From assembly GCA_963920765.1 (NCBI GenBank), contig OY987244.1, forward strand, positions 622,501 through 686,500: a stretch of DNA of 64,000 nt, in the 5' to 3' direction. The notes beneath the pieces were generated by a model. The model was given only the letters and a program-made list of their open reading frames with translations, made no database searches and had not been told where the DNA came from. The translations under genes and the position numbers were made by a program. Source of the stretch: Ulota crispa. Its lineage: Eukaryota > Streptophyta > Bryopsida > Orthotrichales > Orthotrichaceae. Below, piece by piece: positions 9,001-64,000 of the stretch (positions within the stretch are counted from its first letter, which is position 1; the number at the start of each line of letters is the position of its first letter).

Positions 9001-10306
9001 TAATCAGTCCATTACACATTTGTAAGAGTTGTATCATCGGGTTTGCGTGGTAGGACATGGTCTTCAAACTTTGACGCAATGTAAACATTACATTTGTTGG
9101 AAAGATTGCAATCTTGTTACATTTTTTTCTCAATCAATATTTTGATGAGTAATGTAAACTTGGCATGTGCTAGATCCTCTCATGAAAATTGTAACAACAA
9201 TAAGCTCCCTTATATTGTTGCAACATAGTGACCATAAACAAGTGCAAGATTGCTTTGCAGTTCTTCCTTGGTTTACACATTGGACTGACAAGGCTAACAA
9301 ACATGCAACAAACAAGGCAACAAAGAAAAAAGGTCTTACAACTTGGCCCTTCATTTTCCTATATTAAGCTTTCTTTTTGATGTTTGAAGAAGCTCTAAGT
9401 GCATGCTTTTGACTCAACAAAGCGTGGCTGTTTACTTTTGTCCTTGTCTAATACATATGGTAAATTTCAATATTATCATTTATAAACTAAAAACAACATT
9501 TCCTTGTCATACATTGATTGAGCAATAACCAATAGCAAACTACAAATGCAAATGGCAAATTCAAGCGGCTTGCAAGAATTTTAAGAAGCTTTTTAGTGAA
9601 GTTTTTTTGAATGCGTTGAAGTTAATGGGTGGATGGCCCGTGGGATGACCCAATGTGATGTAAATTGGGTAAAGGGTTGATGGAAGAGAGACGCTCTTAG
9701 GTTCAAACAATGAACTCTTTTTGAAAGCATGCAAGGATATGAAGAACCTTACCACCATTTCCAAACTAAATGAGGGGGCTTTTATGAAAACAATAAACAA
9801 ATGGTTAAGTTATATGTAGAGCAAAAGATATATGACATTTGTTGTGCCAATATTGAAATTATATTTTCCAATGTTGTAATTGAAGCAGTAGAGGGTCAAA
9901 AGATGTTTGTGCAATTTTCCATATAATTTTACATTCTTAATAAGGCATTCAATATCAGATCATATCATGTCAAAGAAACTCCTTAAACTTGTAAGAGTCT
10001 TTGATAGCTTTTACAAACAATAGCATCAAGTAAAAAGTAGCCATTTTTTTTATAGTTGTAATACTAACCAAGATATATATATAAAAAAGTATTCAAGTTG
10101 CCCACTGTTTCTCAACATTATTTTAAAACAAAATAACCAACATTTATGTGTGTCAATAATTAAAATGAACATTGCATTTACATACACATACAATTACTTG
10201 AGATGATACAAGAACCAATGCTCTCAAGTAACATGTCATTAAACAGTTGGCAATTTGTGGTGATGCAATAAAAAGATGGTGCACTTCTTATACCTTAGCC
10301 CTTTAA
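6060..10306. other. 5' flank of helicase, then AT-rich gene desert
   Basis: 6,060-7,200 is moderately GC-rich and should contain the promoter and 5' UTR of the minus-strand helicase. Short frames at 6,403-6,666, 6,534-6,863 and 6,974-7,183 show no recognised domain. From about 7,300 onward the sequence is strongly AT-rich and no frame longer than about 85 codons is present. I recognise no gene, RNA gene, LTR element or transposase here. Confidence 0.5.
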
Positions 10307-10378
10307 CCCTTTAAGGACCACAAAACCACCTACTGATTGACTTGCAGTGTATTTCACATACATTTGGTCCTTAAAGGG
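10307..10378. mobile_element. 72-bp TTAA-flanked micro inverted-repeat element (piggyBac-like MITE)
   Basis: CCCTTTAAGGACCA at the left end is a perfect reverse complement of the right end TGGTCCTTAAAGGG. TTAA lies immediately outside both ends (10,303-10,306 and 10,379-10,382). The element is only 72 bp, so it must be non-autonomous. TTAA target sites and CCC-starting termini are typical of the piggyBac superfamily. It could also be a fortuitous hairpin, but the flanking TTAA pair and similarity to the other copies in this window argue against that. Confidence 0.7.
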
Positions 10379-10423
10379 TTAAACACAACAACCTTGGAGC
10401 AATACTAGATTGCAAGAGGGTTG

Positions 10424-10458
10424 CATTAGCCCAAAGGTTGCATTAGCCCAAAGGTTGC
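10424..10458. repeat. Short tandem duplication (period about 18 bp)
   Basis: The phrase GGTTGCATTAGCCCAAA occurs twice in tandem just downstream of the 72-bp element, followed by a third partial GGTTGCATT. This looks like simple local duplication with no further function evident. Confidence 0.6.
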
Positions 10459-10870
10459 ATTTACTTAGTTTGAGCTCCTTGTCCTTATAGGGTTAAGCCT
10501 TAACTTTGAAGCTGATTCTTGAATCCAAACCTTGCTCTAGTTTTATCAACCCAACCAAACCTAAATAGTAAATTTTTTGTCAATCCTCAACCTTAAGCAA
10601 TTCTACTAAAATATGTATTTTATTTTCAAATGAGAAAAATTGATGGGAACTTTAAAAGCACTACAGAACACATAAAAAGTAAAATTGTAGTAACATGCCA
10701 ATCCAAAAGTGTTTGTCTCATAGAATTACTACATATTCTTCCATCCATGCAAACACATAGAAAATAATTCTAAGTTTGAAATGAGTTCAACTTAATCTAA
10801 CAACACAATATTCCTTGCAAAAGATATTGATGAGAAATCATGTCTAAGAGTGAAATTTGAGATTATTCAT

Positions 10871-11789
10871 CCCCTAGAGGACCAAGCCCTTTTTTCAGTG
10901 AAAGTATTAAAAAACTGCCACTTTTGGGGGAATGAGTAGAAAGGTAGGAAAAACAATTATTTTTGGAAATCCAATTGTAAGATCTTGCCCTAGATTATGG
11001 GAGGTACTTGTGGAAAAAAAACTAGCTCATTCTAGATAAAGAGGAGTGAGATATTCACATCTAAAGTGAAAAAAAAAGTTTTTTTCCCTACTGCCCAAAA
11101 ACTCAGAAGCCTTTAATTGCCCCTAAATCAAACAAATTGCTCTATGCAAAGTTGAGGTTTATTTTTTTCATGTAGAAGACCAAGTTAGGTAAGTGTGGGA
11201 GAATTTTCAAATGAATTGGAGGTGTGAATCATACTTTTTAGAATCTTGCAATGCCGTAAGGCCATCAAATTTGCATATACACTAGGCAAAATTAGAGGAT
11301 TTATGTAAAATTCAGAAATTTGAATCACTTTGATCCAAATGGTGAAAACCAAGGATTCTTAGTCTATTACAACTTGGGAAAAAAAAAGTCAAAACGACCT
11401 CAAAAAAGTAAAGTACCAAAGGCAAAAGGAATGGAAGTATAGGAGTCTCATACTTGCCCGCAAACTAAAACTTTTCACTCATAAGTCAAAATTGAATGAC
11501 TTAAAGCTACCCACATATGTATAAATCTAAAGAACCAATTTCAGATTTTTATTTTGAAAAAAATGTGATTTAAAAAAAAGTTTTTGGCTGCCCGCTCTCT
11601 CCTATTTCTCAAAAATTCATGCATAACTTCTTCAATAATTGTTGGTACAAAGGAAAATTTAGATGCCCACATAGATCTTTGAATTCCCCATCTTCAATAA
11701 AAGTTTCAAAAAATCACGCAAAGTAGTTTAGCCATAGGTACATACCCAAATCCCATTTGTCCCCCAAAGGGACAATAGTACTTTAGGGC
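10871..11789. mobile_element. Dispersed TIR element, copy B (piggyBac-like MITE, intact interior)
   Basis: The left end CCCCTAGAGGACCAAG and the right end ending in CTTTAGGG are degenerate forms of the family terminal repeat. The flanking TTAA sites have decayed (TCAT and TTAT). The interior is closely similar by eye, in the same orientation, to 49,305-50,514 and in its first ~350 bp to 63,404-63,752. It has no coding potential. This copy lacks the 276-bp insert present in the 49-kb copy, so it serves as the empty-site reference. Confidence 0.75.
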
Positions 11790-12193
11790 TTATATCTTAG
11801 ATCCACTTGCACAAGAGCTGAGAATACTCCATTTCCAGCTGAGAATACTCCATTTCCAAATTCAGCTATTATGAAAGTGCCCTTGTAGGCCATATTTGAT
11901 TCTCATCACCACTGCAACTCATTTTTTCCCTGATATTTATTTTTTCTTTCTTTTCTAATTCTCAAAGCTCGAATTTGGACTTTGGTGTCCATCAGATTGA
12001 CAATATCGGCACATTGAATTCTTTATTTATCCAATTAGATGAGATAAACCCTGACCTAAAACACAGGAGCTTCTCTGATATACCTTATAACTCTCTCATC
12101 TTAGAGTGCTTCCACTTCCAATGCGCTCTTCACCAACTTGGACTGATCATGACTCCACCCAATAGAAATTATAAATCAACTCAATGACTTTAA
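11790..12193. other. AT-rich spacer between two TIR elements
   Basis: About 400 bp without a recognised gene. A short duplication, AGCTGAGAATACTCCATTTCC, appears twice near 11,820-11,860. The 70-codon frame at 11,975-12,187 has no recognised motif. Confidence 0.4.
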
Positions 12194-13110
12194 CCCCTTA
12201 GGGCCGGAGGAGAAGAAAAAAAAAAAAAAAACTGCCTTTACAAGTTTGAAATGAGATTTAGGGTGTGTTGTCAATTTTGGATCATGGATTGATCAATTAC
12301 AAACATGCACGAAATGAAGTCTATTTTCCCGAGCACTTGTTTGATCAAAGTTTGAAATTACAAGATGTTGTAAATAGAGTGATCCATTGGAAGGGGTATC
12401 AAGAAACTTGAGTGTTCAATACAAATCACTCACCAAAAACACCAACAAGAGGATGATGTCACTTGATGTCTTTAAAGACCGAGTAAATAGTGCCACAACA
12501 ATAGCTAATCTAATTATTCTTTGACTTTGTACCCCCTATCCGAGCTCTTTAGTCCTTTCAAGGTTGCACAATCAAAATCATTTATACATTGTCACACTTC
12601 TTTTGAAAAACACATAGTTGTAGATCAATACTATTCAACTTGTCTAGTTGGATTTTCTAACCATGTAAAACTCATTTTTTTAAAAATAATCAAAATTTCA
12701 TGATCTTTTCCACAATTTTTGCACCCTAACCACCCATGCCTTTCCTTCACCAAATACAACAGATGGTTCAACTTTTTGCCAAAATCCCAAATTCAAGCCC
12801 TTCAACATATTACATGTAAGAAAGAGTCCACAATTTCAAAATCTAACTCTATAGTAGTTGCTCGTATGAGTAGTTCATACAACTTGTATGATCCAAATTT
12901 AATCCAATGCACCACCTTTCACTTCACCAATGCAATACATATCATAAGCAAATTGCTCCAAAAAAAATTACATGCTTAACTTCCAAGACCGCAGTTTACA
13001 TCGGTATGGATGGATTGTGCTTTTCACATTTGACTTAAGTGCTAAAAAGCCTGAAACAATTTGCTTTTCCAAAAGAACAACCAGCTTAGAGAGCAGGCGG
13101 CCGTAAGGGG
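12194..13110. mobile_element. TTAA-flanked TIR element, copy C (917 bp)
   Basis: The left end CCCCTTAGGGCCGG pairs with a right end whose complement reads CCCCTTACGGCCGCC. Both ends abut an exact TTAA (12,190-12,193 and 13,111-13,114). The interior is AT-rich and differs from copies B and E, with small frames that carry no recognised transposase motif. It is interpreted as another non-autonomous member or subfamily of the piggyBac-like group. Confidence 0.68.
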
Positions 13111-13114
13111 TTAA

Positions 13115-14658
13115 ACGCGGTAGTCACACAGCATCAATTCTCAGGTTATTGATTGATTCTCTTGAACTAAATACAGTTCTCCAATTGAAATTCAGACCCA
13201 GAAGCATCCATTCACCAACCTTGAGAATCAACATGCGTAAATTACTTTGACCATTAAGCCATTAACTCCTTAACTTCACACATAATAACAGCACACGTCT
13301 TATGTGCCAGCAAATACGGGATTGCACACCATTCCAACCACAGAAACTGTACCAAATTTCATCTCTTGTGACAGATATTGAACCAAAATGGTCAAAATCA
13401 AGGTCAGACAAACCCAGAAAGAGTTCAAAGAATGCAATACAGCGAGCAATTCAACCGCCCCATAACAAATATCGCTCTAAAAAAACGTGTCTTCCAAATG
13501 CAATTCAAATCTCTCATGGCCGCTTTAGTTCTGATAGCGTAATATCGAGTTTAGACTTCGCAAATCCTAAATTTCAGATATCAAATATTGAAGTAACAAT
13601 ATTCAAAGAACATCTTATAAAATTAAAAACATCTTTACATCTTAGTTTCAGAACAAGTTAAGAAAAAAGGATAGCACACATCTGATCAACCTTGTGAGAG
13701 GAAATATTATGAGAAGAAGGATCAAGCAAGCATCATGTAACTCGCTAAAATCCCAGAATGGAATGGGTTTAGGAAAGCCAGCAAACAAGCTTTGTCTCGA
13801 CAACCCAATACATGTTCATGAGTTGAAGCATGAGACAAATCACTCCAGCTGGATCTGGGTTTTAACAGAATTAAGACCTCCATTTCTACTAGCTGGGAAC
13901 ACTTTTAGATAAGATATACGTTCCCACGGGCTGGCATGAAACACCAGTTTTACTTGTAAAGAATTCCAGCGTCACTGGGTCGAGAACCAATTTATTTAAA
14001 CAACAATTAAGTGGTCGATTCAGCATGCACAACTATGCACATCGAAGGCAAATTGCGAAACTTTCTAATTCTAATGTGAATGCTGAGTGAGGAGAGACAA
14101 AGAGGAAATCGAATTTACCTAGGTGTGGATCCATATTGCAATAAAACAGTGTTACGATAGTTCCCATCCCATTATTACACCAATGATACATCGCCCTTCG
14201 GATTTGATCTGTCTCCTCAAACCTGCAAAGTAGAAGAAATCGTCATTCATAATGATCACCTGATTGTCAAAGAAAACGAACCTGACAGAAGAGAAAACAA
14301 CTAATATTGCAGTATTGACAGATAAAATTTGTAATTACAGTTAGTTAGCCCCTGCTGACACCGCCTAAGCAGCAATTGCAAGTCGCTAATTCGTGGGTAG
14401 GAACAACATAAGACACTAACTCAGAGGTGCTTGTCAGAGTTCAAAGGGCACTGTATCATACTTGTAAAGGAGAGGCACACAGCATAGCTCGATTAAGAAA
14501 CTCCTCTCGCCTGCAGTAATTGAGGCACTTAAGATGCTTGCCTCTGAATATTTCAGCAATGCCTGGTAAGCCCTTCCAAGAACCTGGTTTCAAGAGTGCG
14601 GGGCGCTGGGGCACATGCAGAGAGAGCTGGAGGACTTACATCAAAAGCCAAAAGCTTT
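13115..14658. other. 3' flank of AP-3 delta, possibly with spliced 3' UTR
   Basis: Downstream of the minus-strand adaptin stop there is a good donor about 20 nt after TAG (GAT|GTAAGTCC on the minus strand, near 14,635). An acceptor TTTGCAG|GTTTGAGG lies near 14,227 and another donor CTAG|GTAAATTC near 14,117. Together these suggest a spliced 3' UTR, but transcript data would be needed. The plus-strand 119-codon frame at 13,302-13,661 has no recognised domain. Confidence 0.3.
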
Positions 14659-17638
14659 CTAGAGAAGAAAATCGGGAATTGGGTCTGTGTTCTGAGGAGT
14701 GGAAACAGGGCTTCCCTGACGTCGGTTGTGACGATGAGAAGATCGATGTTTGTGCTTCTTTCTATGCGACTTTTCACTGAGTTGGAATGTACCTTCCTTG
14801 TCATTTTCACTACTAGACCCTTCTTTATTCGGTAAAACAAGTATTTCGTGTCTCGAGGGTCTATGTTTGCTCCTCCTGTGCTCCCTATGACCGACATCTG
14901 ATGTTTGCTTGCCAGCTTCGGTGCCCAGACCGCTACCTGTATCACCCCCCAATTCATCAACCTCCCCGGGACTGGTCTTCTCCCTGTTCTTCACCGAACG
15001 ATGGCTCTGCCAAGACTTCCTTGAAGAGGATGCACCAAGGTGACTCTCTAAAACGTCAGCTGCATTGCGACCCTTGTTCCCATCTGCAGAAAGTGCATCT
15101 CGTATTGCACTGAACACCAACTCATCCTTCAACCCTTTTCTGCTCACAGTTGCTGAAACACCAGGCAAATCATCTTCGTCGTCCAGTGCAACAACTACTG
15201 GCCTGCGAGCCTTTCCTTGTCGAGAATTGGCCCGCAACAGGGAATTATCATTGAATATAGATGAGTCAGATGGTGTCTGTGACGCAGCTTCTGAGGATGC
15301 CGTATGTTGAGGAGGCGGATAATCCACGGAGGGCGCATCACTTGGCAAATAAAAACTCTCATGTCTATGACGATGCTGCTGTAATAACGCAGCACTTGAA
15401 TCCACAGCAGAAGAGGTTTCTTTACTTGGCGGTTGAAAGTTAAATTCAGCTTCCCATTCCCGATAAGTGGTGCTAGATCGTGCCTCTCCAGTATGCAGAA
15501 GCACGTCATCACTGCGATCAACGGGGCCTAGAGCATCAAGATTCTCTTCGGTTGAAAGGCCGTTAGGCAGGGAAACTCTACCCTGTGCATGCACAGAAAC
15601 AGGTCCCAGTTCTAACGAAAACACCTCGCTCAGGGCAGTTAACATTTCAAAGCCTTCCTTCACTCTCTCGGAATTGCTGGGATCCTCGAATGGTTGAATC
15701 AATCCCAGTACATTACACGCCCTCTCCTGCACTTCCATGTCCACGCTACTCACCAAAGGAGCCACATTCTCTTTGATCAGTTCCACCGCCGCATGCAATG
15801 ACCCTCCCTCGCCAGGTCCACCAGATTCCTCGTCCTCTGGAACTTTTGACTTTCCAAGAGATTTGCTCTTGGCATAGGATACAAAAACCTTCAAAATCCC
15901 CTGAAGATAGACCGCGTGTACCGAGACAGGTAAAAGACGAGTGCGGGGTTGGAGAAGAGCCTCCAAGATTTCATAAGGCCCCAGAGGTGCTCGTTGAATG
16001 TATTCTCCAACTATCCAAGCGGCCGCACAAAGCACACCTCGCAATGCAGGTCTCCCGAGGAGGGCGGGGTCGACCAGGAGGCCACGGGCGACTCTCACGA
16101 CGTCTGCCCGCATAGATTCCACTCTGAGTGCAATGTCCACGAGCTGGCGACCTACTTCATCTCCATGTTCGCTGTGGGGGATGCGAGCGATGTCAGCCAA
16201 AACTGATACATACCAACCAAAATCTGACACGAGCTCATACCGAACCCGGCTACATGTCTGAAGTATTGACGACACTAGTTCGTTGCAAAAGTCCGCGTCT
16301 GCTGACTGCGCATAGCGAAGTAAAACCTGCAAAGTAAATGCCGATATTGGTATTAGTACACACTTGAGGCATTTGGGATTCTGGAACCTCTGGATGTGCC
16401 GGGACGCTTCGACCTGCAAACGAAACAATACTTACTACCAGCACGAACGACGGCATTATTGGTTAATAGTGCAGGACCCCGCAAATCTTGTAAAAGAAAT
16501 CCTCCGTACGTTAAGTGACTCGTACCTGCACTGTCTCCTCAACATTGCTTTCAGAAACCATTCCCATGATAAGAACGAGAGCGCTCCTCTGTATGCTTAA
16601 ATCCCCGTCGTTCAGGCACTTAATAATGCCTTCCTTACTTGATTCCAGAGCCCATGGGTGTGAGTTCATCAAGGCAGCAAGCGCTTTCAATCCCAGGTAC
16701 TTCAAATTCGGATCTCCAAGTGCCATATTTTCCCTCAGTTTCTCCACACATAACTTCACAGCTCCCTCATGCTCACTCAACCCAAGCGTGACCGTGCGGA
16801 TGCATTCAAACAACAGTGATTTCGCGTGCGTTTTCCTCATGTGATCACACAAAGGCGCTGCTATTTTGCGGCCCAGGCGGGGTTCCAAGGGAGTCAAAGC
16901 GCCAAAGATTTTCACCAGCTTGATTGAGAGCCAATTGTTGGTGGACTTTTCGAACAGTCGAAAGAACTCGGGTGCCAGAGGAAGGTACGCCCGGGGATCT
17001 TTCAAAGTCAGTTCACACAAAACGCTGACTGCAGCGCACACTACCTGTGGATCCGCGTCGTCCATCTTCTCCACAAGCCGCTTAAAGGCGACCCTGATGG
17101 CATCGGGGAACCTCACAAAAACCCTAAATAACACTAGCGTGGACTTCTTACGAAGGAAACTCCGGCCACTGGCCATCAAGGTGAACACTTCCGAGGTCAG
17201 TACAGCTGCCAGATCCGCATTCAAAATCCGCGCCAGGCATTCGATGGCCATGCTTGTCTCGTACTCGTTCTTGCTCCCCATGTCCTTTCTCAGCAAGTTT
17301 GTGGTGAGGACCAGCACATCAGTCCCTTCATGAAAACTCTGTGCCGCCGCAAGGTAGCCCACTTTTTTGTGCGAGAATTTGAGCATGGTCATAACCTCCA
17401 CGATGTGAAACGACGCCCACGACATGTCAGCTCCACAGGCCATCTGCAGGTACGTCAGTTTCTGAAGAGCAGTCACCTTGATGATCGGGTCCGTGGACTT
17501 CATCTCCTTCCGAACCTCCTCCAGCGCTTTCGCCAAGTAGCGCGACTCGCCTATCATTTGCAGCCGCAAGCCTTTCACCAGATCGTCCAATGTCCTTTGA
17601 AACAAGGACTCCATCATTGCCGATGCCGCCATCGCCAT
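14659..17638 (-). CDS. AP3D: AP-3 complex subunit delta (large adaptin)
   Basis: This is the delta large chain of the AP-3 adaptor, which sorts membrane cargo from endosome/trans-Golgi toward the vacuole. Two exons, 17638-16526 and 16326-14659, join in phase 0 to 926 residues, similar to plant AP-3 delta (about 870). The adaptin N-terminal alpha-solenoid covers roughly residues 10-600, with family phrases such as FQRTLDDLVKGLR at the start, LPLAPEF and DPNLKYLGLKAL mid-way, and DFGWYVSVLADIARIPH after the junction. The last ~300 residues are low-complexity and end in a Lys/His/Arg-rich tail, consistent with a variable hinge/ear. The first ATG of a cluster (MAMAASAMM) was taken as start. The join ETVQ|VLLRYA keeps exact spacing with other AP-3 delta chains. 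An in-frame upstream acceptor at 16,413 is an alternative. Confidence 0.93.
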
Positions 17639-18303
17639 CCCACTTTTCCCAACCCTAAACAGCCGATGATTACCTACCTGTTCTTCCGAAACGCAGCACG
17701 GATTGAAAACAAAACAGACAATCTCATCGGAATATCACATGCTCGTTCAAAAACTCGCAATCACAAGCTCGCCTTGCTTCCATCAAAGCAAAACCACCGC
17801 AGCAATTTCATTACCCGCGCGTCACTATGAAACAAAAGGGAAGCTGATCGACAGAAAGCAGCAGAACCGTTGCAATTCGGAAACCCTACACTGAACCCTA
17901 GAAACCTCAATCAGGCAAACGCTCATGACAAAGATACATGAAATTAACAAAGAACCGAAACAGAGAATCCCTGCGTCAGCGACAACACCGCCCTGGCTAT
18001 AAACTTACTACGAACTCCCCGAGGCCTCCAACATGTTATGACTTATGACCACAATCCAATCTCAAAGGAGCTCGACTAAGCTTAGTGAACCTGCAAAACA
18101 GGTTTGTGATCAGGGCTTTTATTTTGGCTACCTGGCGCCAGATTCGCTTTTTTTATATTCGATATCACTCAATGGCACTGCCTCCCTCCACAATTCGTCC
18201 ATTCCTGGACTCACACGGCGGCTTCTCACTGTTCATCAACAGTGCGAAAAAAAAGCCCTGTTTGTGATAGTACCAGTGAACTAGTTAGATGACTCAAAAA
18301 TAA
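17639..18303. other. 5' flank of AP-3 delta with telobox-like motifs
   Basis: This holds the probable 5' UTR and promoter of the minus-strand AP-3 delta gene. AACCCTAAA at about 17,651 and further ACCCTA words near 17,880-17,900 resemble plant telobox elements, often found near starts of housekeeping genes. No TATA box was assigned. Confidence 0.35.
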
Positions 18304-18305
18304 TA

Positions 18306-18666: not shown

Positions 18667-18668
18667 TA

Positions 18669-34920: not shown

Positions 34921-34923
34921 TAA

Positions 34924-35320: not shown

Positions 35321-35323
35321 GTG

Positions 35324-35874
35324 TTAAGGTAGGAGGCTCATGAATGGAGCATCTAAAGGCTGAAATTGAATTTTGGAGAGGTGAAACTTCTTGATATATT
35401 TTTCAGTGAATTTTTCTTGAAAGACAAGAGGAATTGGCATCTAATCTAAGTTGCTTCATATTTTTTGGAGCTTTGCAGAATTAGTTATAGAATTTTGAAG
35501 TTGAAATGGCATATGCCTCTAAAATGGTGTACCTCCTTAACCCCTGAAGGGCCCTTGGGCTACGGTACCAAATACATTCGCAATCAATATTCAAAAGTTT
35601 GAATCAGCTAGAAATTAAGTGATACAACCATACATATTGAAGGGTTGTATGATGGTGGGTGCATAAAAAAAAATTGGAAAGCCCTCAAAGCAGCTCAAAT
35701 ACGTCTGTACATACGGCCATACGTACGGCCGCAAAGGGCTTTTGTGACGTTTAGGGGTTAATTGTGCCTATACATTGTTGAAAGGTTGTGAAAAACAACA
35801 TGTACGAAAAAAATACATTTGAGGAGGTGCACCATTTTAGAGCCTCCACACTTTTAGAACCTCCTATCTTAATG
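35324..35874. repeat. Imperfect foldback element enclosing a TTAA element
   Basis: TTAAGGTAGGAGGCTC at the left is the imperfect inverse of GAACCTCCTATCTTAA at the right. Closer in, CTCTAAAATGGTGTACCTCC (35,511-35,536) pairs with GGAGGTGCACCATTTTAGAG (35,823-35,842). The 217-bp TTAA element lies between the inner arms, so this looks like an older foldback that received a later insertion. The outer arms are only moderately similar. Confidence 0.5.
35541..35757. mobile_element. TTAA-flanked element, copy D (217 bp)
   Basis: The element starts CCCCTGAAGGGCCC and ends TTTAGGGG, with exact TTAA outside both ends (35,537-35,540 and 35,758-35,761). The terminal match is limited to about 8-10 bp plus a displaced AAGGGC. 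A palindromic segment with CATACGGCCATACGTACGGCC lies near the right end. It is assigned to the same piggyBac-like group with lower confidence than copies A, E and I. Confidence 0.55.
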
Positions 35875-35880
35875 CCTTAG

Positions 35881-41600: not shown

Positions 41601-42460
41601 GTATTGTACGATGCCCTTGCATTTGTTTTCATTCACCTTGTTTTACCAATCAAAAACTTAAACACTGTATTCAATAAAACTAGCGTTTTAGTATCTTGTA
41701 TTAGCAGTTTTTAATTCTTATGCAATCCCAATCAAGCATATCAAATTTTGAGTTTAAAAAAACCGAAGCCCTATTTTTGGTGAATAGTTTTACATAATAT
41801 TCATGGTTTTACATGATAGTTGCTTTAGGAGAATTGGTGATGAATTTTTGAGATTTGGTTGCACGGATGTGTAGGAAACATCCATATGCACATCTTTCCT
41901 TCTAACAAGCACCTCCAAAAGTTTTGAAATTCCTTTTATGTAGGTTTTAATGTTGGGGTGATCAAAACCAAATTTTGTAAGATAGATATTGCTATTTGAC
42001 TCATACAACATGATTAGGTTTGAAATCTTTGAGCATAATGATATGGTTATAGCTAGTTAAAAAGTTAGAGGTATTTATTTTGTAAGACTTTATCATGATC
42101 ACTCCAACATTAAAACCTACAAAGAAGGAATTTCAAAACTTTTTGGAGATGCTTGTTAGAAGGAAAGATGCACATATGGATGTTTCCTACACATCTATGC
42201 AATCAAATCTCAAAAATTTATCACCAATTCTCCTAAAGCAACTATCATGTAAAACTATGAATATTATGTAAAACTATCCACCAAAAATAAGGTTTTGATT
42301 TTTTTTAAACTCAAAATTTAATATGCTTGATTGGGATTGCATAAGAATTAAAGACTACCGATACAAGATACTAAAATGCTAGTTTTATTGTATACAGTGT
42401 TTAGGTTTTTGATTGGTAAAACAAGGTAAATGAAATCAGTTGCAAGGGCGCCGTACTGTA
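41601..42460. repeat. Large inverted repeat, arms about 365 bp, loop about 130 bp
   Basis: The left arm 41,601-41,965 (starting GTATTGTACGATGCCCTTGC) is matched in inverted order by 42,095-42,460 (ending GCAAGGGCGCCGTACTGTA) with high similarity by eye throughout. This resembles a long-TIR foldback or Mutator-like MITE. No clear target-site duplication was found, and there is no transposase frame. A transcript would form a long double-stranded hairpin and could be a small-RNA source. Confidence 0.85.
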
Positions 42461-43247: not shown

Positions 43248-43732
43248 TGATATATGCACAGTTGGAATTTGATATATGCACACCAGGAGGTTAATTTTAG
43301 ATATTTATCATTAACAAGTTGAATTTGGAAAATTTGAATTTAAATATGGATTTAGAGACCTTGACTTTAATCTAGAACCACAAAAGAGGTTACAATTAAA
43401 CAATGTCTAGTGGAAAAGCTTAGCTAGGAAACAAATTATTACTTTATTACTTTTATCCTCAATTGTAAAAAAAAATTAAGTTCTTTCACTAGACATTGTT
43501 CAACCCCTAAATGCATGAGGCACCAAATTTTGGTGTTGTACAAACCAAAATTTGATGCTTCAAGCACTTACTGGTTAATTATAACCTCCTTTGTTGTTCC
43601 CACCTAAAGTCAAAGTCTTTAAATCCAAATATGAATTCAAATTTTTCAAATTCAACTTGTCGAAGATAAATATCTAAATTTACCCCTCCCCCCGATGTGC
43701 ATATATCAAACTCCAAGAGTACATATATGAAT
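43248..43732. repeat. Second inverted repeat, arms about 170 bp, one arm interrupted
   Basis: 43,248-43,414 pairs in inverted order with 43,487-43,732 (for example AGATATTTATC with GATAAATATCT, and AACAATGTCTAGTG with CACTAGACATTGTT). The right arm is longer because a 71-bp TTAA-type element sits in it at 43,504-43,574. Removing that insert and one target-site copy makes the arms nearly equal in length. It is unrelated in sequence to the 41.6-kb inverted repeat. Confidence 0.78.
43504..43574. mobile_element. 71-bp TTAA-type micro element with visible empty site
   Basis: The element starts CCCCTAAATGCATGAGGCAC and ends with its imperfect inverse (TGATGCTTCAAGCACTTACTGG). Its left half resembles the left end of the 54,158 element. 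Flanks are TCAA (43,500-43,503) and TTAA (43,575-43,578). The opposite arm of the surrounding inverted repeat has the uninterrupted sequence with a single TTAA at 43,398-43,401. That pattern is the signature of insertion with TTAA duplication. Confidence 0.75.
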
Positions 43733-48199: not shown

Positions 48200-48976
48200 G
48201 CTGAGCGACGCACCAGAGAGCGGCGTCATAATGTCCGAGAGTAGGTCCAGTGCACGGGAATCCCATAAAAAAAGAACAGAACAATCAGCTTAGCCTCCGT
48301 CTTCTGTCGACGCAAGGCCTCGTCCGTCCCTGCGGTCCAGACTCCAGAGCCAACAACCTCGCATTGGCGACGACGACGCCATCGAATACGACACATGCTC
48401 AAGGACACGGTTTGCCCCGGGAAGCATGCCGGCGGGTATCAGCCCACCCTTGTATCTGTACACAGACTGAGTACTGACTACTGAGGATATCGGTTCCGAA
48501 CCCGGATCTCAGTGCCTCTAATATCCTTGGAGTCGTCGGACTTTTGAGGGTTTGAGGAGTGTTTAAGGTAAACGTACCTATACCCGAGCGTTTAAGGGTT
48601 TGGGGTACCTCGAGGTTTTGGAAAATTCCAGAAAAAATATCCATAGGGTTAGTCTTTCAACAAGCTATCACCAAATGTAATTTTTGTGAGAAAACATTTT
48701 GTAAATTATTTTATATTAAAGATCAAAATTGTAACTCATAGGGTCTCTATTAGCAACTCTAAACTATCCTTGAAACTACTTGGATGAGTTCCTATACATG
48801 TGCTTGACTGTCCCAATCCCAACCCTCTCAAACTAGCTCCTAAGCTAACATGTGGCAAGGTTCACTTGTGCAAGTGGCATTCACTGCTCCACTACGGGTT
48901 CAAGAGTGAGTGGTGCACACCTCAAAACTACGGGTCGGCATTGGGTGATGCTCGGTGAACGACATGTTTACCTTAA
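48200..48976. other. 5' flank of phosphomevalonate kinase and spacer
   Basis: 48,200-48,420 is GC-rich and probably holds the kinase promoter/5' UTR. A low-complexity GTTT/GAGG-like patch (GGGTTTGAGGAGTGTTTAAGG and relatives) lies near 48,545-48,620. No gene was recognised. Confidence 0.4.
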
Positions 48977-49304
48977 CCCATTAAGGTCCAGTCGACCAGT
49001 TTGTGGTCAATTTTGACTTTTTTTATTGGTAGGAAGAGCATGTCATGGAATTTGAGGATACGACAAAGGGGATGGGTGTAGCTAAATAGAAATCCTATAA
49101 CTTAGAACAAAAATCAGGTTTAGCTGTGCTGCCATATGGTTAGGACATTGGAAAAATTCAAGAAGTAATGGTTGCCAAAATACATGAATGAATGTAGAGA
49201 GATTGTCATAATCAGTAAAGATTGAGTACTTGTATGCATTCCCAAGAATCTAGATTTTCCCTAAACCCATCATCACCCTAAAGAATTGCCTTGTGGTCCA
49301 TTAA

Positions 49305-50514
49305 CCCCTAAAGAACCAAGCCCATTTTTTAGTGAAAGTTATTGAAAATTGCCACTTTTGGAGGAATGAGTAGAAAGGTAGGAAAAAACATTTATTTTTG
49401 GAAATCCAATTGTAAGATCTTGCCCTAGGCTATGGGAGGTACTTGTGGAAAAAAAAACCAGCTCATTTTAGATAAAGAGAAGTGAGATATTCACATCTGA
49501 AGTGAAAAAAAGAGTTTTTTCCCTACTATCCAAAAACTTAGAAGCCTTTAATTGCCCCTAAATCAAACAAATTGCTCTATGCAAAGTTGAGGTTTATTTT
49601 TTCCATGTAGAAGACCAAGTTAGGTAAGTGTGGGAGAATTTTCAAATGAATTGGAGGTGTGAATCATACTTTTTAGAATCTTGCAATGCCATAAGGCCAT
49701 CAAATTTGCGTAATTAGCTCTTGCTCAATATTATGAGGTTTTCAAGGAGCCTTTTCACTGTCTAGAATAATCCTCCCGCTTTGCCGAGACAGCAATCAGA
49801 GGGAGAATCAAGGCGGCGACCACTGGTTAGAGAATAACTCTCGCAAAACCTGATTAGGTCATGGAATGGATGTTGGGAGGAGCTTTGCCGGATATAATCT
49901 GCTGTTCCCACTCATGGCTCCCGCCGCTCGCTAGGATCGGCAGATTATATCCAGCAATGCTCCTCCCAACCTCCACTCCATAGTACATATATACTAGGCA
50001 AAATTTGGAGGATTTATGTGAAATTTAGAAATTTGAATTACTCCGAACCAAATGGTGAAAACCAAAGACTCTTAGTCTACTACAACTTGGAAAAAAGAAA
50101 AGGCAAAAAACAAGTTCACAAAGAGCTCAAAAAAGTAAAGCACTAAAGGAAAAAGGAATGGAAGTATGGAAGTCTTGTACCTGCCCGCAAATTAAAACTT
50201 TTCACTCATAAATCAAAATTGAATGTTTCAAAGCTCCCCACATATGTATAAATCTAAAAAACCAATTTCAGATTTTTATTTTGAAAAAATGTTATTTAAA
50301 AAAAAAATTGGCTACCTAATGTTCCCTATTTTTCAAAATTTCATGCATAACTTCTTTAATAACTGTCGAAATGAAGGAAAAATTAGATGCCTACACAGAT
50401 TTTTGAATTTTCCATCTTCAGTAAAAGTTTCAATAAATCACACAAAGTAGTTTAGCTATAGGTACATGCCCAAAATCTCATTTGTCTTCCGAAGGGACAA
50501 TGGTCTTTTAGGGG
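49305..50514. mobile_element. TTAA-flanked TIR element, copy E, nested in F and itself carrying an insert
   Basis: Ends CCCCTAAAGAACCA and TGGTCTTTTAGGGG are inverted repeats, with exact TTAA outside (49,301-49,304 and 50,515-50,518). The interior is collinear with copy B at 10,871-11,789, but a 276-bp segment (49,710-49,985) is present only here. No coding potential. Confidence 0.8.
49710..49985. repeat. 276-bp insert with a 44-bp-arm hairpin
   Basis: Comparison with copy B shows that sequence between AAATTTGC and CATATA is extra. It is GC-richer than its surroundings. Its right half, 49,861-49,981, folds into a hairpin: 44-nt arms (49,861-49,904 with 49,938-49,981) differ at only about five positions, several G:U-compatible, around a 33-nt loop. 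That geometry fits a plant miRNA-precursor-like foldback or a small foldback transposon. No match to a miRNA family I know was seen. Confidence 0.6.
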
Positions 50515-50518
50515 TTAA

Positions 50519-52711
50519 GCAACAAGAAAGAACAATCCATGAAGGAATACGATCCACCACGATAAAAACCGCCGTATCTGTACGAAAATGCATATAGGCA
50601 CATTTAAACCTACTTGCAAATAAAATCAAACTTAAAAAAATGATGAATACCCACAAACCATGCATGGTATTGCCATCCGTACGATTGGATCTTAGTACGC
50701 TTTCATATTTGTTGTTAGTACGAGTTTTACCAAAACACCAGAAAAGGCCTTGCCCACCCCAGAACTAACCACAAACCTTAACGGGTTAACCTCTAAGCAC
50801 CTGGGCTATTTTCACCAAAATCAAGCTTTCAGGAGATCTACAACTTTGATGCATTGTATCTTAGTCAATTGGATGATCCATAAAAAGTGACCATTAGAAA
50901 TCGTAGAACACCTACTTAGAAAATGGCTTGCAAATTTTGGGAACAATTGACCATGGGAGATGGGAGATTATAGCATTTGATCAAGCAACATGTGATGACA
51001 AAATCTCATTTTTTAGTAGATAGTTGCTATTTGATGATTTTTATAATAATCATCAAAAAAATGGGCATTTTATGACTCTAAGTTATGACTATCATGAGTC
51101 AGTTTGAGGTAAAAATGACTCACAGTAGTCATAACTCAAAGTCATAAAATGCCCATTCTGTTGTAGTGTTATAAAATTCTATAAGCCCTTGATTCATCTT
51201 AGTTTTTGTGAGTAGCAAGATTAGATGTGAATGCACACAATTGTAAAGTATTGAAGATTGTACTTCTTTTTATGTCGAGTTTTAGGGCTTCAAATTGCTA
51301 TTGCACAGAAAGTGATGACCGGCACAATTGGTGAGGGTTGCCATCCTTTGGGTCTAGAACATGCTTAAACCTTTGCCAAAAAAATCTCGCTACCACAAAG
51401 CACACAAAGAAGTTTGCAAAGGATATTGAATATTTGTAGCTTGTAAAACTCTTCTTGCCAACACAATCCGTATGGTGTTTCACCCAATCAAATATCTTAG
51501 AGCACTTATACAACATTTAGCTTTCTTGGCCATTACTTTGTTGGCATGGACAACTTGAATGCCTTCATAATTGTAGTTTATAGCAAAATCAAAAAGTTAG
51601 ATCTAGTGCCTCAAACAAGCCTTTGAAATCATGCAAGGACACTTTTGGTCCTCTAGGGGATTTAGGGATTAACCTTTTTGTTCTTGTGAACTTCCTTATT
51701 ATGACGTTTGTATAAAATGTCTTGTGACACAATTTAATGTGATAGCAAGATATATCTGCGCTTGGTAAAAACATTTCATAGAATTTAGCAAAGATAAGAA
51801 AATATGATAGTAATCCATTTGATATTGAAGAAGTTTAGGTGTATGAGATCAACAAAGCATTTGGATATACCTTTGGTACTTATATTGACCTTTGATATTC
51901 CAAAAATGGAAGTATAAAAGTAAAGAAAACACTTAAGCTCTATTGTGAGGTAGTACACATTAAGGGTTTATTTAAAATTCATACCAAATTGTACATTGTT
52001 GTTGAGATCCATGGAACCAAACTCTTCCATTATTAGGTGGATTATGATGTGAAGCTTCCATCAAATAGATTGCATATTTAGGTTAGATGTCATGTATAAC
52101 CAATTCAAGACCAATTTTAAACTCTAAATACAAACACAAGGTCAATGTGGTCAAAAGACATCTTTATGTCATACACATTATTAGAAAATAGACATTAATT
52201 ACAACATAACATTGCCCTTCTATTGAGGGATCTCCCAATGCAATTTATAAGGTGTCAAATCATATTATCATTTTTAATTATGGACTTTGGATTGTTCCAA
52301 GTTAATTTATAATACAACATAATTCAACAATGAAACCAAATAGTTGTGATTCAAGTCCATGCAAAACAAGCTCACTATTCAAGAAACATGGACCTCCTCA
52401 TCTTGTTCAATTTCATGACTCATTGTCTCAAGGGATCACGCCCCATTACAATTGGATACCACCTGTGATAATGGGGTAATTAAATGGGGGTATTTAAATT
52501 CTTTTTAAGGTAAATTTTTCCTCCCTTTCTTTTGATAAAAAGCTACTTTAGTGTATTTTAGGGTACCCTATGCTTATTTCTAAATGGTTATATGACCTAA
52601 TTTTTCAAACCCAATTTTTTTACAAACACAAAAGTATCATAAGAAAAAATTATGTGTATATAGTGGGTTTATAGAAGACTTTGGTCCACAAGAAAATAGA
52701 GTACAAATTTA
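50519..52711. other. AT-rich interior of composite element F
   Basis: No recognised gene. Fragments resembling family termini occur (CGGGTTAACCTCTAAG near 50,779; GGTCCTCTAGGGGATT near 51,647), suggesting further decayed insertions. Minus-strand frames at 51,298-51,516 and 51,589-51,774 have no domain I can name. Confidence 0.35.
51061..51156. repeat. Hairpin with 41-bp arms and 14-bp loop
   Basis: 51,061-51,101 pairs with 51,116-51,156 with about five mismatches (ATGGGCATTTTATGACT with AGTCATAAAATGCCCAT at the base). It is either a foldback MITE or a small-RNA-type hairpin. The flanks show no obvious duplication. Confidence 0.7.
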
Positions 52712-54153: not shown

Positions 54154-54157
54154 TTAA

Positions 54158-55093
54158 CCCCTAAATGCCCAAGGCACCAAATTTTGGTGTTTAGGAAACT
54201 CTAAAACGTTGTTGAAGGCCAAGATTTTAAATTTCCTTTTTTGAGAAGTTGTTGTTTGAAGTTAGCTTTTACCTTATTACATTTTTTATTTATTTTATGG
54301 AAGTTAAATTGCAAGTATGCATATTGCTCATTGAAAATGTGGTGAGTAGTGTCACTAAAAAACTTGAACATTGTATTTGTTAATTTGGGAAACCCAAAAG
54401 GGATTTTAAGGGCATTGAATTTTACATTTGTGAGAATATTTTGGTGATTTAACCCCTAAATTCCCAAGGCACTTTTTGAGCTTCTAGGAATTTGTTATGA
54501 GTCAAACAAAAAGTCAAAATTTTGATAAATTGTATTAGGTTTTTGAAAATTGTAACTCTACAAAATCAAACTACACATGTTAGAGATCACACAAGAAAAG
54601 AAATGCGATAATATCACTAATGGATTGAAAGATTATAATGTTTGATTAAGTGGGTGTTAAAACTATGAAAATGACTTGAGATCTTTTAGTCCTCTTTTCA
54701 CAAGTCAATTTTAAAAAATGGTCACATGAAAAATATGGGGTTAAAGGACATTTCATACATAACTCCAATCAATTTAAGGCTTTTTGAAAGCTCCTCTACA
54801 ATTTTATTAAATAAATTTCTAGTGTAAATTTTTCTCCAAGGTCTAATGTATTTGAGGCTCATTTCCAAGAGCTCTCAACATTAAAATAGTCAAGATTGCA
54901 ATGGACACCCTTGCTCAAAATCTTGAATAGAAAAATCATCATCAATCATTTACAAATCATATTTTTAATGCTAAAACTAGACTTCAAAAAGAATAGTTAA
55001 AATAAAATCTACTAAAAATAGCAACTTACTTAGGTTTTATAGAAGTTCAATGCATTGTCCACACCATAATGTGGTGTCTTAGGCATTTAGGGG
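54158..55093. mobile_element. TTAA-flanked TIR element, copy H (936 bp)
   Basis: The left end CCCCTAAATGCCCAAGGCAC matches the inverted right end (complement CCCCTAAATGCCTAAGACAC) over about 26 bp. TTAA flanks both (54,154-54,157 and 55,094-55,097). A second left-end-like sequence, TTAA followed by CCCCTAAATTCCCAAGGCAC, occurs inside at 54,449. Non-coding and AT-rich. Confidence 0.72.
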
Positions 55094-55097
55094 TTAA

Positions 55098-55809: not shown

Positions 55810-55813
55810 TTAA

Positions 55814-56818
55814 CCCCTAAAGGACCAAGGGTGTGTTTTGAGAAAAAATTTCAGAAATTGCCAGCTTTTACTGCATTGCCCAAAATTGAAAATAAAAACC
55901 TTTTTTCTCAATTCCAACCGTACAAAAGGGTGTCAAATAGATAATTTAATATGTAAAAAAAAATTCAGCTCATTTAACCTCGCGGATTGTAAGATTATAA
56001 CGTTTGAAGTGAGAAAAATAGTTTTTTCATTCCTGCAAAACAAGGTCAAAAAACTTTGAGCCTTCCTAGAGTAACATTTTTGCTCTATACAAATTTGAGC
56101 TTTTTGACTATTCACAAGTACATGATGTTAGGTTCACTCATGAAAATTTTCAAATGCAAAGATAGAATCTAGCTTATTCTAAATCACCTTGCAGTGCAAG
56201 GAGGTTTAGTGAATTGGCAATACATTAGTCATTCTTTCATGATTTCTTGTGCAATGAGGAAGTCTTTTATTTGAAATTTGAATGATGAAAAGTTAGAGAC
56301 AATCATTTGGAGTATGTGAAAAAAAGTTTCAAGAGTTTAAGATTTACAAATTGAAAGATGATAGAGCCAAAAGTTAGAGGAATTTTTTTTCTTGAAACTG
56401 CCCAAACATAGTTAACAAAGTTTGACTCCCTTCTAAATTTGATGTGAGAGTTCAATTTTTTTATTATTTTTTGACAATTGTACACCATGTTTTTTTAGTT
56501 ACATACTTGCCAAATTTCAAAAGTTGAAGAGAGTTTTAGCATAAGATTCTCCAAAGATGCCCAAGCTACTCGAACTGCCCAAATTCTTTAAGGTAACTTA
56601 ACTTTTGAACCAGGCATCCAATTTGGAAAAAAATTACATCTTCACTTATAGGATACATATTTGCACCTTATGTAACAATTTTGAGAACATCCAATAAAAT
56701 CTAACTTCATATGACCTTACCCGAATTCTCAAGTGGCTGTTGAATAGCCACTTGATCCTTTAGGGGTTAATAGCCACTTGATCCCTTAGGGGTTAATAGC
56801 CACTTGATCCTTTAGGGG
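55814..56818. mobile_element. TTAA-flanked TIR element, copy I (about 1.0 kb), right end triplicated
   Basis: The left end CCCCTAAAGGACCAAG abuts TTAA (55,810-55,813). The right end CTTGATCCTTTAGGGG abuts TTAA and is present three times in tandem. The interior is diverged from copies B and E but keeps the same start. No coding potential. Confidence 0.72.
56741..56818. repeat. Tandem triplication of a 26-bp element terminus
   Basis: The unit AATAGCCACTTGATCC followed by YTTAGGGGTT occurs three times with a 26-bp period. Each copy ends in GGGG followed by TTAA (56,767, 56,793 and 56,819). One copy has CCCTTAGGGG in place of CCTTTAGGGG. Confidence 0.9.
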
Positions 56819-56822
56819 TTAA

Positions 56823-60800: not shown

Positions 60801-62734
60801 GGCTGCACAATCACCATTGAAACACAACGATGTAAATTTCGTTGGAATTATAAAAGTGAATGAGTGTCGAAAACACAGTGGACGAAGATTGGCAACAACT
60901 TATGATTTCCTCAAAATGTAGCTTATTATTCTTCTCATACCTGAGCGAGATAGCCTCCCAGGGCTGGTCCGATGATCAATCCGAGACCCCAAAAAGTTCC
61001 AACCTGCGCGAACAACCCTCCCAGACTACACACTCAGCTACTTGCAACTAAACCCTAACTGAATCCTTGACCCTGCACCTTGATTAAAAACGATCATCTC
61101 AACTACCGAGTTACGAAGAGGGACTGGTTCTGCCAACGTGGCGCTCCTCAAATATAATCTCTGAAAGAAACGAGTTTCTTGTGGGGTGGAACGCCGTGAC
61201 GAGCACTTACAGTTGAAACACCGACCGCTTGATTTTTCTCACTGCAGATTTCTGACGAGTAAGCCTGCACACCCATCCCAGGCAGTTCATAAATTGCTTG
61301 TTACTCCTGCTGATTAACAGCTACTAAGTGTCCAGACTGGTATATACACGTAAATTGTGTTGCAATTCGGAAACAAGTGACGGGCAGGGGAGGAAAAGAT
61401 GAATACTTTCACGGTTGCGAGCATGCCGTTGAAGCCTCCGAGAAGAAACCGCATAGCTAAGGCGACCCAGAAATTGGTGCTCATACCAAATCCTGTGCCA
61501 AATACAATCCTGCCATTGCCAACCGACACATATGCTGAGACTTGAGTCACCTAACACAATCACTCGGCTTCTGCATGTCATGCGTTACTGCAAACGCAAA
61601 AGAAAAACCTAAAACTCTCTATCGTACATAAGGTAAGAAACATCAGACAAAGCTTATGTAGAGAGTAGCTAGCGCGGTGCTTACACTGATACGACGCCAA
61701 GCATCATTACTGGCTTTCGACCATATTTATCAGCTATCATACCCCACCCAACTGAGGTCAAGCATCTACCGATCATGAATGTTGATCCTGCAGGCCACAG
61801 TAGTTCCCAAGGCGACAAAGTAAGCTAGCGTTGTGGATGTCATTGAAGGCACAACCTAGCTGCCACTGTAAAGCCGAAACTTAGTAAAACCCCACAGACA
61901 CGAAAGTCACAGTAGGACACACACACAGAGTCTGCCATTGTTGCTTACCCAAAGCTCCGACGTAATAGCCGATATCATCCTTGCTTTTCGCTATTTGAAA
62001 ATCGCTGACCTGTATCACGAAACTCCCGCAGGCTCACTTCGGTAACGACATCAAATGTTCTCGAAAATACGCAAACGAACGAATGCACGTGAAGGGGCAT
62101 ATCCGACTGTAAGCTTTGTGAATTCAACCTCACGCCATCGGATTGCACTATGATTTTGGAGGTTCAAACAAATTGTAAATAGCAAAGATTGAGGAGGTGT
62201 TCCAATACTCACCATAAAATAAATAAAAGGGTAAAGCGACGCAATTGGTAGTGCTGCCAGATTCCCAAACACACCCAACCCTGCGTCAGTCTGAATCCTT
62301 ACTTACACACTCTTTTCGTTGCCCAACCGAACGCTGAAAAATTAGTCTAGATAGATAGTATGCCACAAGTAGGTTGCCAAGTCATCCACATGTTCCGCTC
62401 TGCAGTGACGAAACCTCGATCCAGGCAATGTACACAGCCCCTCCTTAGAGTACATAACTCCGGTACTCACAATTCGGAGATTTGAGCATTTCTTGAGTTT
62501 ACCAGCGCTGCGCTAATATTGCAGAGGAGAGGAGAGGGTGGACAGAGTAGAGTGCTCACTGTTGCACACCACCAGGAGAGCCACGACAGCGAGCTCCTTT
62601 GTGGGGAGTTTGTCATCAGTGTAATGCCTCAGCGCAACCTCGCAGCCTGGACAGTCGGGATACAACACCGGTCTCGGGCGAACCTTGAGCGGCTTCTCCA
62701 CGTCCTTCACCCGGGATTCACTTCTTCGGCCCAT
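57828..62734 (-). CDS. ZIFL: ZIFL-type major facilitator superfamily transporter
   Basis: This is a membrane antiporter of the Zinc-Induced Facilitator-Like family, whose plant members move metal chelators, organic acids or auxin/K+ at tonoplast or plasma membrane. Exons: 62734-62560, 62253-62213, 62009-61949, 61787-61685, 61509-61407, 61264-61211, 61003-60941, 60802-60753, 60655-60580, 60425-60278, 60068-59893, 59688-59601, 59312-59227, 58901-58794, 58621-58577, 58457-58369, 58226-58183, 57940-57828; 540 residues (typical ~480). Diagnostics: N-terminal CPGC, LPIASLYPFIYFM, the MFS loop GWGMIADKYGRKP, the antiporter motif GLGLIIGPALGGYLAQ, YPYLLPS, DIAYTEVFSLW, QRGAANGLSMTFASLFKAMGP and FAWAQKREDAQFLPG. 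Extra length lies in a long acidic central loop after ETLH (about residues 242-320). All 17 intron phases close. The substrate cannot be told from sequence. Confidence 0.92.
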
Positions 62735-63399
62735 GTTGATCCCTTCCCTTCGAAACTATAGCCTTACTACTCAGTACTCGTGAGCGTTGTTGTTGTTGTT
62801 GTTGTTGTTCTTGTTCAAGTGACAAGTACTCCAGTAAAGTTGGAATGAACCAACCTCCCGTCAACTGCAAGGCAAGGGAGCTATGGATCGTGAGTGCCTT
62901 CACTACCTTGCAAAAAGCTCCAAATGTACTCATGCAAGGAGGCCGCAGCTCGTCTGGATTCCACAGGACAGCTGGTCGACCAGCTTCTCGTGGGCTGATG
63001 GGCTGACAGTGGTGTTGATGCGAAACACGCTGAGCACAGCACCCGGGCGCCGGTGAAGCCAGCGACAGCGTGCGATGGGAATCCTGAGAAGACGGCACAC
63101 GTGATTCATCTCTCTCGATCGCACACGTGCTTCGTGTTGCAGTAAGTTAGTGAGTACTGTACGTAGTATGAAGCGGCGTTGGGGACTGAGACAGATTTGC
63201 AGGGCGCCTTTCCGATCAACGGCTTTCTATATTAAGAGCATCATTCTCCAGTTGACTTCAAATGAAAAACTTCATCAGTGGGAAACACTGAAATTTCTTG
63301 CTAACCTAACCTTTCTGTCTTGACAAGTCTCCTTATTTGCAAAAAAAACACCATATTCGTTAAATTGGGAAAAATAGAGGTACCTTTTTATACTCTACC
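62735..63399. promoter_or_regulatory. 5' flank of the ZIFL gene with a (GTT)n tract
   Basis: Probable 5' UTR and promoter of the minus-strand transporter. A trinucleotide run GTT x about 7 lies near 62,787-62,808 (CAA repeats in the transcript sense), giving a Gln-run in an overlapping minus-strand frame (62,718-63,098) that has no recognised domain. No TATA box was assigned. Confidence 0.35.
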
Positions 63400-63403
63400 T
63401 TAA

Positions 63404-64000
63404 CCCCTAAAGGCCCAAGCAATTTTCTTCAATGAAAGTTACTGTTAATTGCCACTTTGGGGAATGAGTAAAAAAGTAGGAAATAAAATTTGTTTTGCAA
63501 ATCCAACCATAGGATCTTGCCTTAGACTAGAAGAGGTACTTGTGGGAAAAAATCAAGTCATTCTAGATGGAGAGGAGGGAGATATTTACATCTAAAGTGA
63601 AAAGAAGTTTTCTTTTTGTGTTGTCCAAAAAATTTCAAAAGCTTTTGTCCACACTTAAATGAAAAAAACTACTCTACACAAAGTTGAGGTTTATTTTTTC
63701 CATGTAGCAAACCAAGTTAGGTATGTGTGAGAGAATTTTCAAATCAATTGGAACTATACAACACATGGGGGAAAATAGTAAGTAAAAAGAAGTAGAGAAT
63801 GAGTCAAATCACTAAATTGTTAAGAATTTAATTATTAATATGAAAAAATGAAAATCCCAATAGTTATAATGTTGTGATAAACAATCTACTTCCTTAGGTT
63901 TAGTTTTTTTTTCCAATTATTAAAATTTGTGGAAAATAAAGGACTTCAAAGTTTATTTTAGAGTAGAGAATCCATAATTGCCCACAACCTAAAACATCTC
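63404..64000. mobile_element. Partial TTAA-flanked TIR element, copy J (runs off the window)
   Basis: The left end CCCCTAAAGGCCCAAGC abuts TTAA (63,400-63,403). The next ~350 bp are collinear with copies B and E, including the AAGTTGAGGTTTATTTTTTCC and ACCAAGTTAGGTA phrases. After about 63,752 the sequence departs from the other copies, so a different interior or a nested insertion begins there. The right end is outside the window. Confidence 0.65.

What the first reader, a model, noticed from the sequence alone, without database searches (positions are those of the whole stretch)
10303..64000. A dispersed family of piggyBac-like non-autonomous elements in a plant genome
About ten elements in the window share CCC(C)TAAAGGNCC-like termini in inverted orientation and sit directly between TTAA tetranucleotides (10,307; 10,871 decayed; 12,194; 35,541; 43,504; 48,977; 49,305; 54,158; 55,814; 63,404). 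TTAA duplication with CCC-starting ends defines the piggyBac superfamily, well known in animals and some other eukaryotes but not a usual component of land-plant genomes. Several subfamilies seem present (AAAGGACC, AAATGCCC, TTAGGGCC), so the family has been active repeatedly. No transposase was found here.
Basis: partly seen in the sequence, partly recalled or inferred. Interest (0 to 1): 0.78.

Follow-up and report, generated by a model that had tools for sequence, protein, structure and literature searches.

The report
piggyBac transposon burst in a plant
The window holds short, gene-less jumping elements of the piggyBac type, best known from animals, and the same green-plant genome carries thousands of their ends and many copies of a piggyBac transposase gene.

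Summary
TTAACCCCTAAAGG (up to 2 mismatches) occurs 19 times in the window, 0.46 expected, and 15,411 times exactly in the 275-Mb own genome, 1 for the reversed control. The piggyBac reading holds for several window subfamilies. The genome gives 120 matches to the piggyBac transposase domain. Seven of 14 longer transposase loci were resolved into 5.0-5.7 kb elements with CCC-starting inverted ends, five with TTAA on both sides. Two window elements match such elements at both ends beyond the repeat (0 of 500 shuffles for each of four ends). Ten of 11 examined copies of the outer element at 48,973 have one TTAA where the window has an insert. In 6 of 7 elements a palindrome is centred 25 bp inside the transposase-5' end, as reported for T. 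ni piggyBac. Unexpected: a conserved ~90-aa coding segment without a Pfam match lies 1.5-2.9 kb upstream of a transposase match in 26 of 41 genome hits (0.05 expected). The host has MatK, so is a green plant; land plant is inferred. No autonomous partner was found for the commonest ends.

The parts
10303..10382 (.). 80-bp element, ends TTAACCCTTTAAGGACC on both sides
10867..11793 (+). decayed copy of the 49301 family; flanks TCAT and TTAT in place of TTAA
12190..13114 (.). 925-bp element, ends CCCCTTAGGGCC / CCCCTTACGGCC; both ends match the L031 transposase element
35537..35761 (.). 225-bp element, ends CCCCTGAAGGGCC / CCCCTAAACGTC
43500..43513 (+). single end TCAACCCCTAAATG; partner not found
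48973..50789 (.). outer element (603 bp without the insert), ends CCCATTAAGGTCC / CCCGTTAAGG; both ends match the L043 transposase element; interrupted by 49301-50518
49301..50518 (.). 1218-bp element nested in the outer one at TTAA; empty site with TTAA in 10 of 11 other outer copies examined
54154..54200 (+). single end CCCCTAAATGCCC with palindrome CACCAAATTTTGGTG; its partner is probably not 55097
54449..55097 (.). 649-bp element; a paralogous site in L030 lacks it and is continuous across one TTAT
55810..56770 (.). 961-bp element, ends CCCCTAAAGGACC / CCCCTAAAGGATC; 38 of 39 other scored copies end at query position 958-964
56771..56822 (.). two further 26-bp tandem copies of the right end, each closing with TTAA
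63400..64000 (+). left part of a copy related to the 49301 family, cut by the window end

Best explanation
These are non-autonomous piggyBac-superfamily transposons in a green-plant genome (probably a bryophyte), moved in trans by piggyBac transposases encoded by 5-5.7 kb relatives in the same genome. The transposase core would bind the CCC-tipped inverted repeats, and its C-terminal dimer would bind a palindrome centred 25 bp inside the transposase-5' end. The element is then cut out and joined at a TTAA, which is duplicated. Several subfamilies amplified this way, at times into each other. Shown: ends, TTAA duplication by empty sites, transposase loci between matching ends, palindrome position. 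Inferred: binding, trans-mobilisation, activity of any one transposase.
For: End motif far above chance in window and genome. 120 piggyBac-domain matches, best E 1.3e-73; 0 of 14 control genomes ring. Elements with TTAA on both sides: L029 3763-8789, L030 3696-8797, L050 1018-6598, L063 1195-6424, L064 1412-6921; L043 895-6550 has TTAA/TCAA and L031 2258-7763 CCAT/TTAT. Window 12190-13114 matches L031, and 48973-50789 matches L043, at both ends beyond the first 20 bases: 0 of 500 shuffles each, and each the best of 14 transposase-element ends compared. Empty sites. L031 and L032 proteins match T. ni piggyBac (6x67) and piggyBat (9c0f), E 5.8e-17 to 2.6e-24. Palindrome at centre 29 counting TTAA: first of 109 centres in 42 non-redundant ends, z 4.4; 0 of 5000 shuffles; 6 of 7 transposase-5' ends, 0 of 7 3' ends; T. 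ni: within bp 17-33, centred ~bp 25 (PMC7351741, passages).
Against: No autonomous copy with the commonest ends (CCCCTAAAGGACCAAG; families 55810, 49301, 63400) was found: none of the first 20 transposase loci (1.5-kb flanks) has TTAACCCCTAAAGG within 2 mismatches, one has it with 3, and the ends of those families have no clear best match among 14 transposase-element ends (scores 20-29). Seven of 14 longer loci were not resolved; L046 and L047 gave TTAA-flanked pairs (13 and 11 of 16 bases) that I did not count, while L043 with 11 of 16 was counted because its ends match a window element. L030 lacks the palindrome (1 of 5 pairs). L032 has N where the third aspartate aligns. 110 of 120 transposase matches carry stops. 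The palindrome was noticed in the data before it was tested; only L063 and L064 are later cases.
Confidence: 0.92

Rival explanations
1. Another TTAA-targeting superfamily (Kolobok or Sola) moves the commonest families, and only the rarer subfamilies (CCCCTTAGGGCC, CCCATTAAGG) are piggyBac.
For: No autonomous partner was found for the commonest ends. Sola is on a published list of plant superfamilies (PMC10741241, passages); that Kolobok and one Sola group use TTAA is recalled.
Against: These families share the CCC tip and TTAA. The 55810 family has the longest palindrome at the piggyBac position, 9 pairs, 0 of 200 shuffles, and the 49301 family has a TTAA empty site. No search for Kolobok or Sola proteins was run.
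Confidence: 0.06
2. Animal or fungal contamination of the assembly.
For: piggyBac is best known from animals.
Against: The ends occur 32,602 times in the genome and on a contig with ordinary host genes, one of which has Oxalis as its best named match (51%). The own transposases group with 19 unnamed metagenome proteins, apart from the two insect rows (100/98, midpoint root).
Confidence: 0.01
3. Chance or a shared regulatory motif rather than transposons.
For: The motif is short.
Against: 19 against 0.46 expected, copies flush at both ends, empty sites.
Confidence: 0.01

Closest known systems
piggyBac (IFP2) of Trichoplusia ni
   Same: TTAA target, CCC tips, related transposase with aligned aspartates, palindrome centred near bp 25 of the left end
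   Different: Plant host; elements of 5-5.7 kb instead of 2.4 kb (PMC2874221, passages); an upstream coding segment is present, whereas piggyBac has one 594-aa ORF (PMC7351741, passages)
piggyBat of Myotis lucifugus
   Same: Best solved-structure match of L031 (E 2.6e-24); palindromes on the left end, none on the right (PMC11707139, passages)
   Different: Three palindromes on the piggyBat left end; here one position stands out
CMITEs of corals (PMC2872659)
   Same: Non-autonomous, TTAA duplication, likened to piggyBac (passages)
   Different: About 100 bp and an estimated 1600 copies in an animal; here 0.08-1.2 kb in the window and thousands of ends in the genome
Plant MITEs of Mutator, hAT, CACTA, Tc1/Mariner, PIF/Harbinger
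   Same: Short, abundant, inverted ends
   Different: A survey of 207 plant genomes (four bryophytes, 14 algae) sorts MITEs into these five and a special group; 'piggyBac' and 'TTAA' occur 0 times in its main text (PMC12550479)

Membership tests
piggyBac superfamily | Insertion at TTAA with TTAA duplication | tested here: met
   10 of 11 outer copies examined keep one TTAA at the insert's site; the L030 site reads TTAT
piggyBac superfamily | CCC-starting inverted tips | tested here: met
   The literal CC[C/T]T motif of PMC2872659 fits only some tips, such as 10303; most have C as fourth base
piggyBac superfamily | piggyBac transposase between matching ends | tested here: met
   7 of 14 longer loci; window 12190 and 48973 elements match L031 and L043
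piggyBac superfamily | Same, for the commonest CCCCTAAAGGACCAAG families | tested here: inconclusive
   no partner among the loci fetched
piggyBac superfamily | Three catalytic aspartates | tested here: met
   L031 aligned to 6x67 (their identity as catalytic is recalled); L032 has N at the third
piggyBac superfamily | Subterminal palindrome for the C-terminal domain | tested here: met
   6 of 7 transposase-5' ends at the T. ni position; binding not tested
piggyBac superfamily | Hairpin intermediate and footprint-free excision | not testable with these tools
   needs biochemistry
Sola / Kolobok | Own transposase inside a full-length copy | not tested
   no protein search for these was run

The most novel reading that the evidence does not exclude
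Green plants host a diverse piggyBac lineage of their own whose elements encode, besides the transposase, a conserved ~90-aa domain of unknown kind 1.5-2.9 kb upstream (N-terminal exon or second protein), which takes part in transposition and in the amplification of thousands of short copies.
Probability: 0.4. Interest if true: 0.75.

Novelty: new variant of a known kind. Interest (0 to 1): 0.62.

Why it matters
A 2023 guide names seven terminal-repeat DNA transposon superfamilies in plants, without piggyBac (PMC10741241, passages), so plant pipelines may mislabel such elements. Other reviews do name plants or list PiggyBac for plants without examples in the passages seen. A native plant piggyBac lineage with many subfamilies would settle that it occurs there in force, would show how conserved the end-recognition geometry is between insect and plant, and could supply plant-adapted tools with clean excision.

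Tried and rejected
Ends within 1.5-kb flanks of the transposase: no TTAA-flanked inverted pair with up to 4 mismatches in 14 bases in any of 20 loci; 3 of 20 show one TTAACCC end. The resolved elements are 5 kb or longer. L046 was not counted, its left end belonging to a 49301-family copy; L047 was left open. A likeness of the L032 3' end to the window's 50789 end, seen by eye, failed its test (45 of 500 shuffles as good) and is dropped. Palindromes were first tested end by end; most single ends were not significant. At 3' ends the best other centres scored 3 or 4 of 5 at differing places and were not tested further. Host: the AP-3 tree puts the window with unnamed metagenome proteins and leaves it unresolved; MatK was found on a 112,500-base contig, but no protein search was left to name it; a plastid-rpoA test for moss did not complete. 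Literature: in the listings seen (several show only part of the papers found) I saw no report of native piggyBac in a bryophyte; ten papers were looked at by passages, none as a whole.

Full report
Observation. Every coordinate given shows the described CCC tip. Eight of ten follow TTAA exactly; 10,871 follows TCAT and 43,504 follows TCAA. With up to two mismatches, TTAACCCCTAAAGG occurs 19 times in the window, 0.46 expected, at most 2 in 100 shuffles. In the window's own genome (274.8 Mb, 157 contigs) the exact motif occurs 7719 + 7692 times, its reversed control once. A looser motif for several subfamilies, TTAACCCNTNANNGNCC, occurs 32,602 times against 14. These are ends; the number of elements was not counted. 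The elements listed as parts add up to about 6.2 kb of 64 kb (my sum).

Elements. Seven elements in the window have both ends and TTAA on both sides. For the 55810 family 40 candidates of 1915 were scored, one of them the window copy: the other 39 begin at query base 1-8 and 38 of them end at 958-964, where the first right end lies; one ends at 944. None of them reaches the two further 26-bp tandem right ends of the window copy.

Empty sites. The element 49301-50518 lies inside an outer element, 48973-50789. Of 39 other scored outer copies the 11 best were fetched (L052-L062). None carries the insert; ten have TTAA at the junction and L054 has a short deletion there. Window 54449-55097 is absent from a paralogous stretch in L030, which is continuous across one TTAT. 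TTAA is therefore a duplicated target.

Transposase. The piggyBac domain PF13843 gives 120 matches (116 candidates scored of 528), best E 1.3e-73, 0 of 14 control genomes, none in the window; 10 of 120 are free of stops. Fourteen loci, chosen by score or few stops, were fetched at 6.8-9.9 kb. Seven were resolved into elements of 5027-5656 bp with inverted CCC ends around the transposase: L029, L030, L050, L063 and L064 with TTAA on both sides, L043 with TTAA and TCAA, L031 with CCAT and TTAT. L032, L044, L045, L046, L047, L048 and L049 were not. L046 and L047 did show TTAA-flanked pairs, 13 and 11 of 16 bases alike, left out because the L046 left end belongs to a short element and the L047 pair is weak.

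Link to the window. Leaving out the first 20 bases, the left and right ends of window 12190-13114 match the 5' and 3' ends of L031, and those of 48973-50789 match the 5' and 3' ends of L043: 0 of 500 shuffles in all four, and in all four the best of 14 transposase-element ends. The window's 52709 end matches the L043 3' end. The ends at 49301, 50518, 55810, 56770 and 63400 have no clear partner (same call).

Protein. The L031 protein matches piggyBat (E 2.6e-24) and T. ni piggyBac (7.6e-20), and the three aspartates that I recall as catalytic align; L032 has N at the third. L031, L032, L043 and L050 group with 19 unnamed metagenome proteins apart from the ant and moth rows. Among the 16 and 25 homologues found, none bears a plant name; most bear none.

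End geometry. Among 42 non-redundant ends of 78, self-complementarity is highest at centre 29 counting TTAA, z 4.4, first of 109 centres; 10 ends pair at 4 or 5 of 5 positions, and no shuffle of 5000 reaches this. That is bp 25 from the tip. For T. ni piggyBac the paper gives a palindrome within bp 17-33, bound by the C-terminal dimer, with the minor groove narrowed at about bp 25 (PMC7351741, passages). The peak was seen before the passages were read. L063 and L064, fetched later, both pair at 5 of 5. Over the seven elements the transposase-5' end scores 4 or more in 6 (L030: 1), the 3' end in none.

Upstream segment. About 90 codons on the transposase strand, near the 5' end, are shared by divergent elements: 10 of 14 loci by tblastn at E 0.01. 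A profile from seven of them finds three more of the 14 and, weakly, L013, and nothing else in the window or the 65 loci held then. Pfam and solved structures at E 1 give nothing. Genome-wide the L031 segment has 41 matches, its own included; 26 lie 1.5-2.9 kb upstream of a listed transposase match on the same strand, 0.05 expected. The L050 segment has 38, of which 20 are so placed (1.5-3.0 kb) and none on the wrong side or strand. The other 15 and 18 have no listed transposase nearby; 412 candidates were never scored, so they may be unlisted, decayed or something else. Whether it is an exon or a separate protein is not known.

Host. MatK occurs on a 112,500-base contig (E 5.4e-100), so the host is a green plant. 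The AP-3 tree does not resolve it. Land plant, and moss in particular, is inferred from recalled chromosome and plastid sizes.

Known or new. The short elements work as piggyBac non-autonomous elements elsewhere do. Their scale in a plant and the upstream segment are the unusual points. A 2023 plant guide names no piggyBac, and a 207-genome plant MITE survey does not mention it in its main text. Against full novelty: one plant review lists PiggyBac among plant superfamilies (PMC10794571), another abstract and a 2010 review name plants among hosts (PMC10813416; PMC2874221), and a fern paper tabulates 1230 copies, 0.00% of the genome (PMC6890710). All of these were seen as passages.

Noticed in passing
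L031:6714-6980, L050:5416-5685, L030:4382-4600 and others: Conserved ~90-aa coding segment without Pfam or PDB match upstream of the piggyBac transposase; 26 of 41 genome matches lie 1.5-2.9 kb upstream on the same strand.
   Followed up: partly
56771-56822: Two extra 26-bp tandem copies of the right end, each closing with TTAA; none of 39 other scored copies reaches into them.
   Followed up: partly
41606-42456: Large inverted-repeat element (arms 184 and 173 nt, 88-89% complementary) whose outer ends show no TTAACCC; relatives in L026 and L032.
   Followed up: no
43289-43685: Inverted repeat with arms of 114 nt, 82% complementary; relatives in L012, L022 and L043.
   Followed up: no
L043:6546-6550, L050:6595-6598: A short-element end abuts the transposase element's end through one shared TTAA or TCAA, as if one had inserted into the other's target duplication.
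   Followed up: partly
14659-17734: AP-3 delta adaptin coded in two long open frames close to each other.
   Followed up: partly
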